Of a stretch of 64,000 nt of DNA, positions 12,153-16,234 are shown one piece after another. The notes under the pieces were generated by a model. It ran no database searches and was not told the DNA's origin. It worked only from the letters and a program-made list of their open reading frames with translations. The stretch's first letter is position 1, and every line of letters begins with the position of its first letter. The stretch comes from Thauera sp. GTDB lineage: Bacteria > Pseudomonadota > Gammaproteobacteria > Burkholderiales > Rhodocyclaceae. The DNA lies in NCBI GenBank assembly GCA_024235615.1, contig JACKMB010000004.1:186001-250000 (forward strand). The letters are read 5' to 3'. The position numbers and the translations under genes are program-made.

Positions 12153-12806
12153 TCAGAACGGCGCCGGGCTGTCGAACACCATCGGCACGCGCGTGTGCGG
12201 ATGCATGAAGGCGATGCGGGCGGCGTGCAGGTGCATGCGGCCGAAGCGGGCGGCGGACTCGGGCGAAGCATAGAGCGGATCGCCGAGGATGGGGTGGCCG
12301 AGGGAGAGCAGATGCACGCGCAGCTGGTGCGCGCGCCCGGTGACCGGCTTGAGCTCCAGGCGGCTGAAGGCGTCGGCGCCCGTTCCGTGGCGATCGAGCA
12401 CGCGATAGCGCGTGAGCGCACGCCGGCCGCGCAGCGGGTCGACGATCTGGCGGGGGCGATCGTCCGCGTCCTCGGCCAGCGGCAGGTCGATCTCGCCGCT
12501 GTCCTGCACGACATGCCCGTGCACCACCGCTACGTATTGCTTGCCGACGACGCGCTGCTCGAAGGCGAGACTCATGCGGCGCAGCATCTCCGCGCCGCGC
12601 GCGAACAGCACCAGGCCGGAGGTGGCGGCGTCGAGGCGGTGCACGATGCGGGCGTCGGCCCAGCACGCCTGGATCCGCGCCGCCAGGCAGTCGTCACGGC
12701 CCGGCCCGCCCGCGGGCACGGAGAGCAGGCCGGCTGGCTTGTCGGTGACGACAAGGAACTCATCGATGTGGAGGACGGGGATCGAGAGATGGATTTCCGG
12801 CTGCAT
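12153..12806 (-). CDS. RluA-family pseudouridine synthase
   Basis: This is a 217-aa RNA pseudouridine synthase. The catalytic motif HRLDAATSGL is at 56-65 (nucleophile Asp59), with VxGKxYxAxVxG and the C-terminal RAHQLRVHLLSLGHPILGD motif. There is no S4 domain, and the length resembles the RluA branch (23S U746/tRNA U32) or TruC. The exact target is unknown. A TTG further upstream in frame would add 23 residues without similarity, so ATG 12806 was preferred. It lies upstream of the FUSC gene, and the two could form an operon. Confidence 0.85.
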   Translation of the reverse strand: MQPEIHLSIPVLHIDEFLVVTDKPAGLLSVPAGGPGRDDCLAARIQACWADARIVHRLDAATSGLVLFARGAEMLRRMSLAFEQRVVGKQYVAVVHGHVVQDSGEIDLPLAEDADDRPRQIVDPLRGRRALTRYRVLDRHGTGADAFSRLELKPVTGRAHQLRVHLLSLGHPILGDPLYASPESAARFGRMHLHAARIAFMHPHTRVPMVFDSPAPF

Positions 12807-12866
12807 GAGGCGCTCTTCAGGCGAGGCATGGTGATGGGGTAGGGGGGCTGCGCTCGGTATGAGGGC

Positions 12867-12884
12867 TGTCGGCAATTTTTACAC
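12867..12884. promoter_or_regulatory. Upstream dyad of PEP-CTERM gene 1
   Basis: The pattern TGTCGG-N5-TTTACAC is present here and again at 15503-15520 ahead of the second PEP-CTERM gene. It lies 92 bp upstream of the -24 element of the proposed sigma-54 promoter, a normal distance for an NtrC-type enhancer-binding protein. The link to a PrsR-like regulator is inferred from the known sigma-54 control of PEP-CTERM genes. Confidence 0.55.
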
Positions 12885-12967
12885 TCTTGCGTCCCTGCCG
12901 CCGGTCCGGCGTCTTCGACTTTTTGCAAGCTTCTGGTGGAAAAGGCGAATTCGATACGATTGCCGGA

Positions 12968-12985
12968 TTGGCATGGATCTCGCTT
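12968..12985 (+). promoter_or_regulatory. Sigma-54 promoter of PEP-CTERM gene 1
   Basis: TTGGCAT-N5-TCGCTT with the GG (12970-12971) and GC (12982-12983) dinucleotides exactly ten bases apart. It differs from the consensus TGGCAC-N5-TTGC at two positions. The expected start of transcription is about 12995, leaving a leader of roughly 35 bases before the ATG at 13031. Confidence 0.55.
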
Positions 12986-13030
12986 CGATCGCGGTGGCTC
13001 GGCGTTGCCGGGAATGATTTGGAGACGGAC

Positions 13031-13822
13031 ATGAAAACAACGACACGGATGATATGCAAGGCCGGTCTGCTTGCACTTGCGCTGAGCGCAGGAAGCGCCT
13101 CGGCGGCGCAGATCTACTGGACGGACTGGACCGGCGGTGACCTGGATTCCGGCAATGGCTTCCGGGGCGTCGGCACGATCACGACGTCGAATGCGACGGT
13201 CACCGTGACCTACACGAACCCGCAGGGGATCGCCTTCTACCAGCCGAGCGGCGGCGCCTACTACTACAGCAACGGCACCGACGGCCCCGCCGGTACCTCG
13301 CCTTACACGAGCAGTGCGGTCGACAACCGGCCGGGAACCACCGACATCATCGCGCTGAGTCAAGCCGGCCTGCAGACCTTGAGTTTCTCGCAGGCGATCG
13401 CGAATCCGGTGTTCGCCTACGTCAGCCTGAACGGCAACGGCTACGGCTTCGACCAGGACTTCGACATCCTCAGCTTCGGCGACGCCAGTGACGGCAATGC
13501 CTGCGGCTACTGGGGCTGCGGAACCTCGTACAAGCAGGTGGCGACGGTCAATGGCAAGACGGAGTACCAGTTGCTGGGCACCGGCGAGCCGCACGGTACG
13601 CTGCAGTTCAAGGGGACCTTCGATACCGTGAATTGGCGCAGTCTCAGCAACGAGTACTGGAACGGCTTCACGGTGGGCGTACAGGAGACGGCGGTCGAAT
13701 ATTGCACGGCGAATCCGACGGCACCCGGGTGCACGCCGAACGGCGTGCCGGAGCCCGCTTCGCTCGCGCTGCTCGGATTGGGACTGGCGGGGCTTGCGGT
13801 CGGGCGTCGTCGCAAGGGCTGA
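13031..13822 (+). CDS. PEP-CTERM sorted extracellular protein 1
   Basis: This is a 263-aa exported protein. The N-terminal signal peptide ends near AGSASA (residue about 25). The mature part is rich in Gly, Tyr, Asn, Ser and Thr with little charge. The last 25 residues are a PEP-CTERM sorting tag: VPEP, a hydrophobic helix and an RRRKG tail, the substrate for an exosortase (EpsH/XrtA type), which is not in this window. Such proteins are linked to exopolysaccharide and floc formation in related bacteria. Start ATG 13031 follows GGAGAC. The middle domain is not recognised; a CTANPTAPGC loop precedes the tag. It is followed by a long terminator shared with the convergent porin. Confidence 0.85.
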   Translation: MKTTTRMICKAGLLALALSAGSASAAQIYWTDWTGGDLDSGNGFRGVGTITTSNATVTVTYTNPQGIAFYQPSGGAYYYSNGTDGPAGTSPYTSSAVDNRPGTTDIIALSQAGLQTLSFSQAIANPVFAYVSLNGNGYGFDQDFDILSFGDASDGNACGYWGCGTSYKQVATVNGKTEYQLLGTGEPHGTLQFKGTFDTVNWRSLSNEYWNGFTVGVQETAVEYCTANPTAPGCTPNGVPEPASLALLGLGLAGLAVGRRRKG

Positions 13823-13844
13823 GGCCGGGTTCTCGATCTCCGCA

Positions 13845-13879
13845 TGAACAAACGGGAGCCTGAGGCTCCCGTTTGTTCA
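13845..13879. terminator. Bidirectional terminator between PEP-CTERM gene 1 and the porin
   Basis: A perfect 16-bp stem (13845-13860 with 13864-13879) with a three-base loop sits between the two convergent genes. The stem ends in AACAAAC/GTTTGTT, giving a modestly T-rich end in both directions, so it can serve both genes. Confidence 0.8.
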
Positions 13880-13929
13880 TGGGTGCACCGGATCCGGGGC
13901 GCTGCCCGGGTCGGTGTGCATTGCGTGGA

Positions 13930-15186
13930 TCAGAACACGCTGAAGGGGTAGTCGAGGAAGATCCGGACTTCGTTACCGCTGGTGTTGTAGGCGCGGGCGT
14001 TGTCCGAAACGCGGAGGGTGGAGGCGCGCAGGCGGACGTTCAGATCTTTCGCGGGGCCGCTCTGCACCTTGTACGACAGCTGATTGAAGAGCTCATGCTC
14101 TTTTCCATCGGTGGTCGTGCCGACATCGATGTCATGACCGCGCACGTAAGCGATGCGATAGCTCAGGCCGGGGATGCCGTACTGAGAAAAGTCGACCGCG
14201 TAGGCGACCTGCCAGGACTGCTCGTCCGCAGCGTTGAAATCGGACCAGTAGGAGTTGGCCAGCCAGATCGAGCCGCCGCCGTCACCGACCCAGCCTTCGC
14301 TCTGGTAGAAGCCATAGTTGTAGTCGACATTGCCGTTGTTGCGCTGGTAGGCGAGCGTGAAGGCATGCGGGCCGGTGGCGTAGGTCGAGGCCAGGCTCCA
14401 GATGCGACTCTTGCCGGGCTGGAAGTCAGCGTCCTGCTTGGTTCGATAGCCATTGAAGTCGAAGGTCAGCGAGTTGCTGGCGATCGGCAGCACGTAGTTC
14501 ACGTTGAGGTACTGGCGCTTGAGCACATCCTCGACGTCGGAGGCGTAAAACGCGCCGCTGAGAGCGTCGTTGAACTTGTAGCTGGCGCCGATCACGTCGA
14601 TGCCCTTCAGCCCGCCGCTGTCACGGCCTTCGTCGCTCTTGCGCGATTGCGCGTGGAACGTGCCCGCATTGAATTCCAGGCCCTCGATCTCCGTCGAGGT
14701 CAGCATCGTGCCGGTGAAGCTCTCGGGCAGCAGGCGGGAGTTGTCGTGACTCAGCACCGGAAGGTTGGGGCGAAGGTCACCGTAGGCGAGGACGGTGTTC
14801 GAGAAACGCAGTTTCAGCGAGGCGCCGCCCTTGGCGACATCCTTCTCCGGCATGCCGGTGCTGTCCTGCTTGAAGAAGTCGATCCCCCAGTTTCCGGCGC
14901 GGTCGCGCGAGCCGTCGAGACGCACCGCGTAGGCTGCGAATGCATCCACGCCAAAACCGATCGTACCCTTGGTGAAGCCCGACTCGAAGTTGGCGATCGC
15001 TCCCTGGCCCCATTCGCCGCTGTCGTGGCGGCCACCCTTGTAATCGCGATTGATGTACGCGTTGCGCAGCAGCACGTTCAGCGCGCTGTCTTCCACGAAG
15101 CCCTTCGCCTCGGCCTGTCCGGCGGCGAATGCGGGCGTCGCGCTCGCGAGCCCAAGAACGATCAAACCAGCCAACTTCTTCGACAT
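13930..15186 (-). CDS. OprD-family outer-membrane porin
   Basis: This is a 418-aa outer-membrane beta-barrel with a signal peptide (residues 1-22, ending AFA). The start of the mature protein, GFVEDSALNVLLRNAYINRDYK, in positions about 29-50, is the typical OprD opening. Alternating aromatic/polar strands run to a C-terminal phenylalanine (FSVF), the usual barrel-assembly signal. OprD-type porins admit amino acids, small peptides or aromatic acids; the substrate here is not known. Start ATG 15186 has GAGGAAA upstream. It lies between two PEP-CTERM genes; its promoter region 15187-15625 is shared with the second one. Confidence 0.9.
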   Translation of the reverse strand: MSKKLAGLIVLGLASATPAFAAGQAEAKGFVEDSALNVLLRNAYINRDYKGGRHDSGEWGQGAIANFESGFTKGTIGFGVDAFAAYAVRLDGSRDRAGNWGIDFFKQDSTGMPEKDVAKGGASLKLRFSNTVLAYGDLRPNLPVLSHDNSRLLPESFTGTMLTSTEIEGLEFNAGTFHAQSRKSDEGRDSGGLKGIDVIGASYKFNDALSGAFYASDVEDVLKRQYLNVNYVLPIASNSLTFDFNGYRTKQDADFQPGKSRIWSLASTYATGPHAFTLAYQRNNGNVDYNYGFYQSEGWVGDGGGSIWLANSYWSDFNAADEQSWQVAYAVDFSQYGIPGLSYRIAYVRGHDIDVGTTTDGKEHELFNQLSYKVQSGPAKDLNVRLRASTLRVSDNARAYNTSGNEVRIFLDYPFSVF

Positions 15187-15343
15187 GTTGTTTTCCTCGA
15201 TGGTGTCTGTTGTGTCTTTCGACCCGTCGGACAGGTCGTGCCTGCCAGGGTGGGGCGCGATTCTCGCATTTCCTGCGGGAGTGGTGCGGCCGGGTTGCAG
15301 GAAAATGACAGTCGGTGCTGCCGGTGGCGCAAGGGAGGGCGAG

Positions 15344-15361
15344 TGTCGGGATTTCTTACAG
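15344..15361. promoter_or_regulatory. Possible third, weaker copy of the PEP-CTERM dyad
   Basis: TGTCGG-N5-CTTACAG, matching the 12867 and 15503 dyads except for two bases in the right arm. It lies 159 bp left of the 15503 copy and 158 bp upstream of the porin start, so it could act on either gene. Confidence 0.35.
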
Positions 15362-15384
15362 TCGATCATAGAAAAAACTACTCA

Positions 15385-15479
15385 ATCTGGGGCGTCATGA
15401 GGCGTTTGGGGGGAGGGTGCGACATTTCTTGTGCAGGGAGCACCCCAACTTGGGGGATGGCGGTGTTTACGCCCCAGAT
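15385..15479. repeat. Inverted repeat in the porin/PEP-CTERM intergenic region
   Basis: Two perfect 11-bp arms, ATCTGGGGCGT (15385-15395) and ACGCCCCAGAT (15469-15479), are separated by 73 bp. Inside lies a smaller palindrome CCCCAA-C-TTGGGG (15443-15455). The region has no gene and is less GC-rich than its surroundings. The function is unknown; a looped operator is possible. Confidence 0.5.
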
Positions 15480-15502
15480 CGAGGCTTAAAGAGGCTTGAC
15501 GG

Positions 15503-15520
15503 TGTCGGGATTATTTACAC
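15503..15520. promoter_or_regulatory. Upstream dyad of PEP-CTERM gene 2
   Basis: TGTCGG-N5-TTTACAC, identical in both arms to the copy at 12867. With one more base on the left it reads GTGT...ACAC, a dyad expected for a dimeric activator. It lies 60 bp upstream of the GG of the sigma-54 promoter; the other copy is 92 bp upstream, a difference of 32 bp or three helical turns. Confidence 0.6.
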
Positions 15521-15571
15521 GCGATATCCGGGCGTTCGGGAGACCCTCAGCCGTTGTCGGCGAAATGGCTC

Positions 15572-15590
15572 TTGGCACAAACCTTGCTTT
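15572..15590 (+). promoter_or_regulatory. Sigma-54 promoter of PEP-CTERM gene 2
   Basis: TTGGCAC-N5-TTGCTTT matches the RpoN consensus: GG at 15574-15575 and GC at 15586-15587, ten bases apart. The predicted transcription start is near 15599, with a 27-base leader to the ATG at 15626. Confidence 0.8.
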
Positions 15591-15625: not shown

Positions 15626-16234
15626 ATGAAACGCACATTGCTCGTCCTCACCTTGCTGGGGCTCTCCGCCACTGCCGCTCAGGCGGCTTCGATCACTACC
15701 GTCGTCAGCGCCAACGGCAATGGCGGCAACTATGGCGGTTCGCTCTCCGTGCTGAACGACGGGATCTTCCCGACCGAGGGCAGCCAGTGGAACCTGGCCG
15801 ACAAGGTGTCGTGGAACGGCAAGGGCAATCGCTTCGTGTTCGCCTTTGGCGACCTGTACCGCATCGACAGCGTCCGTCTTTCGGTGGATAACAACGACGG
15901 CTACCTGCTCGAATACTCGACCGACTACTCCGCCTGGGCGAGCCTGCTCACGGTGTCGAGTGGCGTGGGCGAGATCGGTTGGGGGATGGACACGATGGCC
16001 ACCGATCCGTCCGATTCCGAGTACGTGTCACAGCTCGCATTCACGCCGCGGGAGGCGCGCTACGTCCGGATCCAGGCGACGGATGGCGACAACTCCTACT
16101 CCATCGGCGAGGTGGCCTTCACCGGCGAGCGTGCCGACAACGGCTCGACCAATCCGGTGCCCGAACCCGCGGGGCTTGCGCTGATTGCTCTCGGTCTCGC
16201 AGGCATGGGGCTGGCCCGCCGACGCCGGGTCTGA
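15626..16234 (+). CDS. PEP-CTERM sorted extracellular protein 2
   Basis: This is a 202-aa secreted protein with a signal peptide (1-20, ending AAQAA). The mature domain resembles a small discoidin/F5-8-type-C-like beta sandwich: SVRLSVDNNDGYLLEYS early, then FTPREARYVRIQATDGDNSYSIGEV in two pieces near 145-170, a pattern typical of carbohydrate-binding folds. The C-terminus is VPEP, a hydrophobic helix and RRRRV: a PEP-CTERM tag cut by an exosortase. Its role in the extracellular matrix is inferred. Start ATG 15626 has only a weak ribosome site. A strong intrinsic terminator follows. Confidence 0.85.
   Translation: MKRTLLVLTLLGLSATAAQAASITTVVSANGNGGNYGGSLSVLNDGIFPTEGSQWNLADKVSWNGKGNRFVFAFGDLYRIDSVRLSVDNNDGYLLEYSTDYSAWASLLTVSSGVGEIGWGMDTMATDPSDSEYVSQLAFTPREARYVRIQATDGDNSYSIGEVAFTGERADNGSTNPVPEPAGLALIALGLAGMGLARRRRV

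What the first reader, a model, noticed from the sequence alone, without database searches (positions are those of the whole stretch)
12867..15590. Two PEP-CTERM genes share a sigma-54 promoter and an identical upstream dyad
Seen: TGTCGG-N5-TTTACAC at 12867-12884 and 15503-15520, with the same spacing of arms; each is followed by a GG-N10-GC sigma-54 element (12970-12983 and 15574-15587) 92 and 60 bp downstream, a 32-bp difference equal to three helical turns. Known: PEP-CTERM genes in several flocculating bacteria need RpoN and a two-component regulator (PrsK/PrsR). Inference: the dyad is the binding site of such an NtrC-type activator, so the motif may define the regulon across the genome.
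Basis: partly seen in the sequence, partly recalled or inferred. Interest (0 to 1): 0.75.

Follow-up and report, generated by a model that had tools for sequence, protein, structure and literature searches.

The report
PEP-CTERM regulon promoters with helix-turn spacing
Two genes for secreted matrix proteins share a switch already known from other bacteria, and comparison shows that the switch's two DNA parts sit a whole number of DNA helix turns apart, which makes the geometry of gene activation directly testable.

Summary
TGTCGG-N5-TTTACAC lies at 12867-12884 and 15503-15520, with sigma-54 boxes at 12969-12984 and 15573-15588, before two PEP-CTERM genes.

In kind this is known: Haft et al. 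2006 (PMC1569441) described this motif pair and PrsK/PrsR/PrsT.

I found no earlier report of the following for these promoters. The motif-to-box spacing is quantised. In 166 promoters, mostly from Proteobacteria, it clusters at 50.6, 61.7, 73.2, 84.4 and 95.5 bp, steps of 11.26 +/- 0.07 bp. With one strict pattern, 29 genomes of the genus give 125 promoters at 49-97 bp and none at 16-46 or 102-132. IHF-like sites sit in matching registers (86 of 166 spacers; shuffled mean 20.7), but the window's two promoters lack a good one. Similar 11-bp clustering is published for Vibrio qrr enhancers (PMC4740811). All protein binding is inferred.

The parts
12867..12884 (+). Activator site (Haft motif 1, predicted PrsR site) of the first PEP-CTERM gene; conserved core 12867-12883
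   Evidence: exact match; 9 exact and 16 one-mismatch copies in the genome, four of the latter in 16S genes; core
12885..12968 (+). 84-bp spacer, fourth rung of the spacing ladder; no good IHF-like site (best 6 of 9)
12969..12984 (+). sigma-54 -24/-12 box TGGCATGGATCTCGCT
   Evidence: 2 mismatches to TGGCAC-N5-TTGCW, best in 12800-13035
13031..13822 (+). PEP-CTERM protein gene, 263 aa
   Evidence: TIGR02595 26.9 bits, cut-off 16
15344..15360 (+). Distal second activator site (TGTCGGGATTTCTTACA), 159 bp upstream of the proximal one
   Evidence: 1 mismatch in the 17-mer; copies with 1-2 mismatches at 158-159 bp in four related promoters, one of them (G009) not independent
15503..15520 (+). Proximal activator site of the second PEP-CTERM gene
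   Evidence: exact match; conserved in four relatives
15521..15572 (+). 52-bp spacer, first rung of the spacing ladder; no good IHF-like site (best 6 of 9)
15573..15588 (+). sigma-54 -24/-12 box TGGCACAAACCTTGCT
   Evidence: 0 mismatches to TGGCAC-N5-TTGCW
15626..16234 (+). PEP-CTERM protein gene, 202 aa; C-terminal part resembles flocculation PepA below cut-off
   Evidence: TIGR02595 23 bits, cut-off 16; NF033554 44.3 bits, cut-off 80

Best explanation
The two promoters belong to the PrsK/PrsR/RpoN regulon for PEP-CTERM matrix proteins. When PrsK phosphorylates PrsR, PrsR dimers bind TGTCGR-N5-YTTACA, assemble an AAA+ hexamer and contact sigma-54 RNA polymerase waiting at TGGCAC-N5-TTGC. The intervening DNA is short (about 50-96 bp) and must bend, in about half of the promoters probably with help from IHF. 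The contact therefore works only when activator and polymerase face each other across the helix, so evolution tolerates spacings in whole turns only: five rungs in this genus, 11.26 bp apart in the pooled set. Shown here by sequence: the motifs, the link to PEP-CTERM genes and to PrsR, the ladder, and the IHF-like sites in register. Inferred: binding, phosphorylation, bending by IHF, RpoN dependence in this organism, and the meaning of 11.26 rather than 10.5.
For: Regulon: a site of at most 2 mismatches upstream of 19 of 20 PEP-CTERM genes; 50 hits against 10 for the reversed pattern. prsK-prsR-prsT in one block, all above cut-off; rpoN 474.5 bits and ihfA 149.2 bits, both above cut-off. PrsR above cut-off in 44 of 50 promoter-bearing named genomes.

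Ladder: 18 promoters of this genome, best period 11.2, R 0.88, no case in 20,000 jittered sets. 125 promoters in 29 genomes of the genus; without the own 15, R 0.82 against at most 0.43 in 10,000 jittered sets. 80 named loci with 0 in trough bins 54-58 and 66-70. 166 promoters after removal of shared spacers, cluster means 50.56, 61.72, 73.19, 84.40, 95.50, slope 11.26 +/- 0.07, Rayleigh period 11.31 (bootstrap 11.17-11.48). Collapsed to 97 homology clusters the period is still 11.28-11.48. With the same strict pattern, 0 matches at 16-46 and 0 at 102-132 in the same 29 genomes. Of 150 pairs of promoters of homologous genes, 129 differ by 0-3 bp, 0 by 4-9, 8 by 10, and 6 by 22-23.

IHF-like: score 8 or more of 9 in 86 of 166 spacers, against 20.7 on average in 30 shuffled sets (largest 27) and 8 of 166 in the 60 bp upstream. 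Forward sites end 5-7 bp before the box in 22 of 39, reverse sites 18-19 bp before it in 35 of 47.
Against: No experiment ties PrsR to the motif here. The window's own two promoters lack a good IHF-like site, so the IHF part does not extend to them. Promoters with weak IHF-like sites are still quantised (score at most 7, n=80, R 0.75), so IHF is not required for the ladder. Of the 150 homologous pairs, 7 differ by 14, 14, 18, 19, 20, 32 and 36 bp; all but the 32 are clearly off the ladder. A few promoters lie off the rungs: 42, 58, 67, 76, 76 and 77 in the pooled set, and 69, 81 and 91 among others in the genus set. Six of 50 promoter-bearing genomes show no PrsR above cut-off (at most 26 candidates per genome were scored, so absence is weak). 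A simple search found a PEP-CTERM-like end downstream in only 45 of 80 named promoters and 85 of 126 in the genus set; contig edges, other sorting signals and other genes make up the rest, in unknown shares. The box in the large sets had to read GGC-N8-TGCT, which leaves out weaker promoters, the first of the window's two among them.
Confidence: 0.87

Rival explanations
1. IHF sets the ladder: quantisation reflects the register between IHF and the sigma-54 box, and PrsR follows because IHF bends the DNA to a fixed angle.
For: IHF-like sites have preferred positions relative to the box: forward sites mainly 5-7 or 16-18 bp, reverse sites mainly 18-19, a few at 8-9 and 29-31 bp before it.
Against: Promoters without a good IHF-like site, including both in the window, keep to the ladder (score at most 7, n=80, R 0.75; window offsets 84 and 52).
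Confidence: 0.25
2. The ladder is inherited: a few ancestral promoters were copied with their genes, so equal spacings reflect descent, not mechanical selection.
For: Homologous genes do keep spacing: 129 of 150 pairs differ by 3 bp or less.
Against: No same-length spacers among 80 named loci are over 60% identical. The ladder survives collapse to 97 homology clusters. When homologous promoters change class, the commonest steps are 10 and 22-23 bp and none of the 150 is 4-9.
Confidence: 0.05
3. The motif is bound by another NtrC-family activator, not PrsR; PrsR regulates elsewhere.
For: The genome has other NtrC-type proteins: 46 matches to the PrsR model, whole or partial, one above cut-off. 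Binding was not tested. Six of 50 promoter-bearing genomes show no PrsR above cut-off.
Against: PrsR is above cut-off in 44 of 50 genomes that carry the promoter and in none of the 14 control genomes. Haft et al. report that the profile of the site matches that of PrsR in 13 species.
Confidence: 0.08
4. The dyad is a chance or unrelated repeat.
For: Four 1-mismatch copies are only the start of 16S rRNA genes and one lies inside a coding frame, so some hits are noise.
Against: Nine exact copies against 0.026 expected; 19 of 20 PEP-CTERM genes; footprint conserved in relatives.
Confidence: 0.01

Closest known systems
PEP-CTERM cis-regulatory motif 1 + motif 2 with PrsK/PrsR/PrsT (Haft et al. 2006, PMC1569441; abstract, passages and the whole motif section read)
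   Same: 17-nt motif ending in TTTACA, a sigma-54 box downstream, upstream of PEP-CTERM genes, motif 1 sometimes repeated, prsK-prsR-prsT in the genome
   Different: They give spacing as mean 62.8, s.d. 10.6, range 32-92; the section read mentions no periodicity and no IHF site. Here spacing is a ladder with a step of 11.26 bp. They too saw a few sites before other genes; here two such operons are described.
RpoN-dependent pepA of Aquincola tertiaricarbonis (PMC9850573; passages read)
   Same: PEP-CTERM gene with a mapped -24/-12 start, RpoN1-dependent transcription and a predicted enhancer upstream
   Different: Experimental there; only sequence evidence here. Spacing rule and IHF do not appear in the passages read.
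Vibrio qrr sigma-54 enhancers with LuxO (Brunwasser-Meirom et al. 2016, PMC4740811; passages and the whole indel section read)
   Same: 61 natural sigma-54 enhancers whose loop lengths (about 80-120 bp) cluster about 11 bp apart
   Different: One gene family in one genus and another activator; they report a sequence periodicity of 10.45 bp inside loops. Here many unrelated genes across several classes, mostly shorter spacers, a measured step of 11.26 bp, and IHF-like sites in register.

Membership tests
PrsR-dependent PEP-CTERM promoter (Haft motif 1 + motif 2) | 17-nt motif 1 upstream of PEP-CTERM genes | tested here: met
   both window genes; 19 of 20 in the genome
PrsR-dependent PEP-CTERM promoter (Haft motif 1 + motif 2) | sigma-54 -24/-12 box 32-92 nt downstream of motif 1 | tested here: met
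   window spacings 84 and 52 bp. In the genome 18 of the 21 non-rRNA sites of at most 1 mismatch were used, offsets 50-96, two of them (95, 96) just beyond Haft's range; left out: L004 (best box overlaps the start codon), L014 (no box of 3 mismatches or fewer), L025 (paralogue of L018, offset 62)
PrsR-dependent PEP-CTERM promoter (Haft motif 1 + motif 2) | genome encodes PrsR, PrsK, PrsT and RpoN | tested here: met
   729.5, 611.6 (PrsK scanned without its N-terminus, cut by the fetched stretch), 814.2 and 474.5 bits, all above cut-off
PrsR-dependent PEP-CTERM promoter (Haft motif 1 + motif 2) | PrsR binds motif 1 | not testable with these tools
   needs gel shift, footprint or ChIP
PrsR-dependent PEP-CTERM promoter (Haft motif 1 + motif 2) | transcription depends on RpoN | not testable with these tools
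   shown for Aquincola pepA in PMC9850573 (passages), not here
IHF-assisted sigma-54 enhancer | IHF site between activator site and promoter | tested here: not met
   window promoters: best score 6 of 9 in both; as a class, 86 of 166 have 8 or more
helically phased sigma-54 enhancer (as qrr/LuxO) | activator-to-promoter spacings differ by whole helical turns | tested here: met

The most novel reading that the evidence does not exclude
PrsR promoters are a natural torsional ruler. Across Proteobacteria, selection has kept the activator-to-polymerase spacing on a few helical rungs (five in this genus), and the step of 11.26 bp per turn, longer than the 10.5 of relaxed DNA, is an evolutionary read-out of how underwound promoter DNA is inside living cells, with IHF docking on the same helical face.
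Probability: 0.5. Interest if true: 0.75.

Novelty: new member of a known kind. Interest (0 to 1): 0.55.

Why it matters
The regulon itself is known, so finding it here is expected. The spacing ladder is the useful part. It turns many natural promoters into a series of spacing mutants and gives a precise predicted step (11.26 bp) and, for this genus, hard limits (about 49-97 bp) for how a short sigma-54 enhancer loop can be built. It may offer a sequence-only route to DNA twist in cells, testable by 5- versus 11-bp insertions and by changing supercoiling. It also gives a sharp filter for finding further regulon members: a motif plus a box on a rung. Two operons without a PEP-CTERM gene, one with HprK-related kinase A and one with a giant repeat protein, have on-rung promoters here.

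Tried and rejected
(2) TGGCGGCATGCTTTACAC in four places looked like a second motif class; it is the start of 16S rRNA (Rfam run on one of the four, L020; the other three have the same 18-mer and the same following bases). (3) Site C1:670505, 1 mismatch: inside the giant gene's frame, no sigma-54 box of 3 mismatches or fewer; taken as chance. (4) Is the distal site 15344-15360 an enhancer of the divergent porin? No good sigma-54 box on the minus strand between 15186 and 15600 (best 4 mismatches); rejected. (5) NtrC-type sites as a control for general sigma-54 phasing: 17 matches in 16 of 81 genomes, many apparently at one repeated locus type; inconclusive. (6) Repeated motif 1 copies: 18 second copies within 250 bp upstream of 160 promoters, against 1 in a control stretch further up; five lie at 111-113 bp; R 0.55 at 10.5, 0.55 at 11.0 and 0.47 at 11.26 with n=18: suggestive of phasing, not followed up. 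(7) Pfam and NCBIfam on part of the giant protein (2,636 residues): no match above cut-off. (8) In the own-genome table one site (L022) had two equally scored boxes, at 33 and 63 bp; I used 63. Two other own sites (L001, L016) rest on boxes with 3 mismatches. (9) ihfB was not searched.
Full report
OBSERVATION. Expected exact copies from base composition are 0.0004 in the window and 0.026 in the genome; found are 2 and 9. The downstream genes, 13031-13822 and 15626-16234, match the PEP-CTERM model above its cut-off, 26.9 and 23 bits against 16.

REGULON. In the window's genome (4,012,043 bases, 14 contigs) the motif with up to 2 mismatches occurs 50 times, the reversed control 10 times. Of the 25 copies with 0 or 1 mismatch, 18 lie upstream of a TIGR02595 match on the same strand (places), 4 are the start of 16S rRNA genes (one checked by Rfam; the other three share the 18-mer and following bases), 1 precedes an operon with HprK-related kinase A (328.2 bits, cut-off 200), 1 precedes a giant gene open for over 5,600 codons to the edge of the fetched DNA, and 1 lies inside that gene. 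A 2-mismatch copy serves one more PEP-CTERM gene, so 19 of the 20 TIGR02595 matches have a site; the exception, C1:851553, is the weakest match (16.4 bits). PrsK, PrsR and PrsT lie side by side at about C1:718,475-723,984 (611.6, 729.5 and 814.2 bits, all above cut-off; PrsK was scanned without its N-terminus, which the fetched stretch cuts). There is one rpoN and an ihfA above cut-off; ihfB was not searched.

WHAT WAS KNOWN. Haft et al. 2006 (PMC1569441; passages and the full motif section read) described motif 1 (17 nt ending in TTTACA), a spacer of mean 62.8 nt (s.d. 10.6, range 32-92), a sigma-54 motif 2, and PrsK/PrsR/PrsT with the same phylogenetic profile, upstream of 99 of 167 proteobacterial PEP-CTERM genes, with a few sites before other genes. 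Aquincola pepA depends on RpoN1 (PMC9850573, passages read).

THE LADDER. I measured spacing as bases from the end of the 18-mer to the first base of TGGC. Eighteen promoters of the genome give 50 51 51 51 52 / 60 61 62 62 63 63 / 72 73 75 / 84 85 / 95 96: best period 11.2, R 0.88, not reached in 20,000 sets jittered by up to 8 bp. Sites left out of the 25: four 16S, one whose best box overlaps its start codon (L004), one without a box of 3 mismatches or fewer (L014), one paralogue (L025, offset 62). For L022 I took 63 rather than an equally scored 33.

The strict pattern TGTCGR-N5-YTTACA ... GGC-N8-TGCT finds 125 promoters in 27 of 29 genomes of the genus (own genome included, 15 of the 125), none in the reversed control. 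They fall in the same five clusters, 49 to 97 bp, with a few strays such as 69, 81 and 91. In the same 29 genomes the pattern finds none at offsets 16-46 and none at 102-132, so the background is near zero and the ladder has five rungs in this genus. Those 80 have 0 promoters in the trough bins 54-58 and 66-70. A simple regular expression found a PEP-CTERM-like end downstream in 45 of the 80; the 45 (R 0.90) and the other 35 (R 0.85) are both quantised. In 276 genomes of the class, searched only at offsets 77-107, 21 promoters in 13 genomes (three of them the window's own) have offsets 82-105.

Pooling the fetched loci L060-L230 (genus, all 120 scan stretches, class; four promoters are from the window's own genome) gives 172 promoters, 167 after removing those sharing spacer sequence, 166 within 45-107. 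Cluster means are 50.56 (n=32), 61.72 (81), 73.19 (27), 84.40 (15) and 95.50 (10), with one more at 105; off-rung values are 42, 58, 67, 76, 76 and 77. A weighted line gives 11.26 +/- 0.07 bp per rung with residuals under 0.14; the Rayleigh period is 11.31 (bootstrap 11.17-11.48), R 0.81 against 0.70 at 10.5. Different subsets were searched over different offset ranges, so the relative heights of the clusters mean little. Collapsing 267 promoters into 97 clusters by homology of protein or spacer leaves period 11.28-11.48 and slope 11.24-11.42 (one cluster is over-merged, 127 members; 7 promoters had no frame to compare). Of 150 pairs of promoters of homologous genes within the genus (126 promoters, 85 with a PEP-CTERM-like end), 129 differ by 0-3 bp, none by 4-9, 8 by 10, 6 by 22-23, and 7 by other amounts (14, 14, 18, 19, 20, 32, 36).

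IHF. With the consensus WATCAANNNNTTR (recalled), 86 of 166 spacers have a site of 8 or 9 matches of 9, against 20.7 on average in 30 shuffled sets (largest 27) and 8 of 166 in the 60 bp upstream of motif 1. Forward sites end 5-7 bp before the box in 22 of 39 cases, at 16-18 bp in 8, at 21-22 bp in 4 and elsewhere in 5; reverse sites end at 18-19 bp in 35 of 47, at 8-9 or 29-31 bp in 7 and elsewhere in 5. In this genome 15 of 18 promoters have an in-register site of 7 or more and 9 of 18 of 8 or more (no control was run for these two counts), but both window promoters are among the three without one. Promoters with weak sites remain quantised (n=80, R 0.75), so IHF is probably a helper, not the cause.

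THE SECOND WINDOW PROMOTER. A distal copy of motif 1 at 15344-15360 lies 159 bp upstream of the proximal copy. Four related promoters (G009, G018, G024, G026) have one at 158-159 bp with 1-2 mismatches. In G018, G024 and G026 spacer and upstream DNA have diverged; distal site, proximal site and sigma-54 box are the conserved islands. G009 is nearly identical to the window here and is not independent.

CO-OCCURRENCE. PrsR is above cut-off in 44 of 50 named genomes that carry the promoter; 50 of the 80 listed loci were given. One more has a sub-cut-off match and five have none; at most 26 candidates per genome were scored.

PRIOR ART FOR PHASING. Brunwasser-Meirom et al. 2016 (PMC4740811; passages and the full indel section read) found loop lengths of 61 Vibrio qrr sigma-54 enhancers clustered about 11 bp apart. 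So helical phasing of natural sigma-54 enhancers is known in one family. I found no report for PEP-CTERM promoters in the listings of searches, in a library that lacks most subscription papers.

WHY 11.26. Relaxed DNA has about 10.5 bp per turn. In-vivo lac looping studies are recalled to give about 11; I did not confirm the figure in a paper. PMC5081198 (passages read) reports superhelical densities of -0.04 to -0.07 in E. coli strains; if all of -0.05 went into twist, 10.5 would become 11.05 (own arithmetic). It also notes that optimal lac spacing did not depend strongly on supercoiling between those strains, which speaks against a simple reading. The cause of 11.26 is therefore open.

ORGANISM. 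Unnamed; a stretch of same-genus genome G009 is contained in a record of Thauera phenylacetica B4P (L105), so the window is probably from a Thauera species (inference).

Noticed in passing
G000:C1:915024-918054 (L235): A promoter of the same kind (spacing 75) precedes a 189-aa protein, an HprK-related kinase A and an NTP_transf_5 protein; ten genomes of the genus, this one included, have homologous promoters at 73-75 bp.
   Followed up: partly
G000:C1:655001-671910 (L234, L056): A motif site with a sigma-54 box (3 mismatches) at 72 bp precedes a giant repeat-rich open frame of over 5,600 codons, adhesin-like by eye; 2,636 residues scanned, no domain match above cut-off. Homologues in relatives have the promoter at 72, 72, 69, 50 and 49 bp.
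   Followed up: partly
window 13930-15186, minus strand: An outer-membrane porin gene (weak match to ChiP/UidC porins, far below cut-off) lies between the two PEP-CTERM genes and diverges from the second; no good sigma-54 box was seen for it.
   Followed up: partly
window 15385-15395 and 15469-15479: An 11-bp perfect inverted repeat (ATCTGGGGCGT / ACGCCCCAGAT) lies between the distal and proximal activator sites; in the alignment the window and G009 have it and the three other relatives do not.
   Followed up: no
G000:C13:11815 and G000:C1:1280623: Two PEP-CTERM genes of 258 aa with identical printed ends, on the short contig C13 and near the end of C1, have diverged promoter spacers (62 and 60 bp); the 3-kb surroundings are 55% identical without gaps, so a diverged duplication rather than a plain assembly copy.
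   Followed up: partly
L096 and L168 (Thiobacillus): On-rung promoters (63 bp) stand before a gene that looks like argJ rather than a PEP-CTERM gene (name by eye).
   Followed up: no
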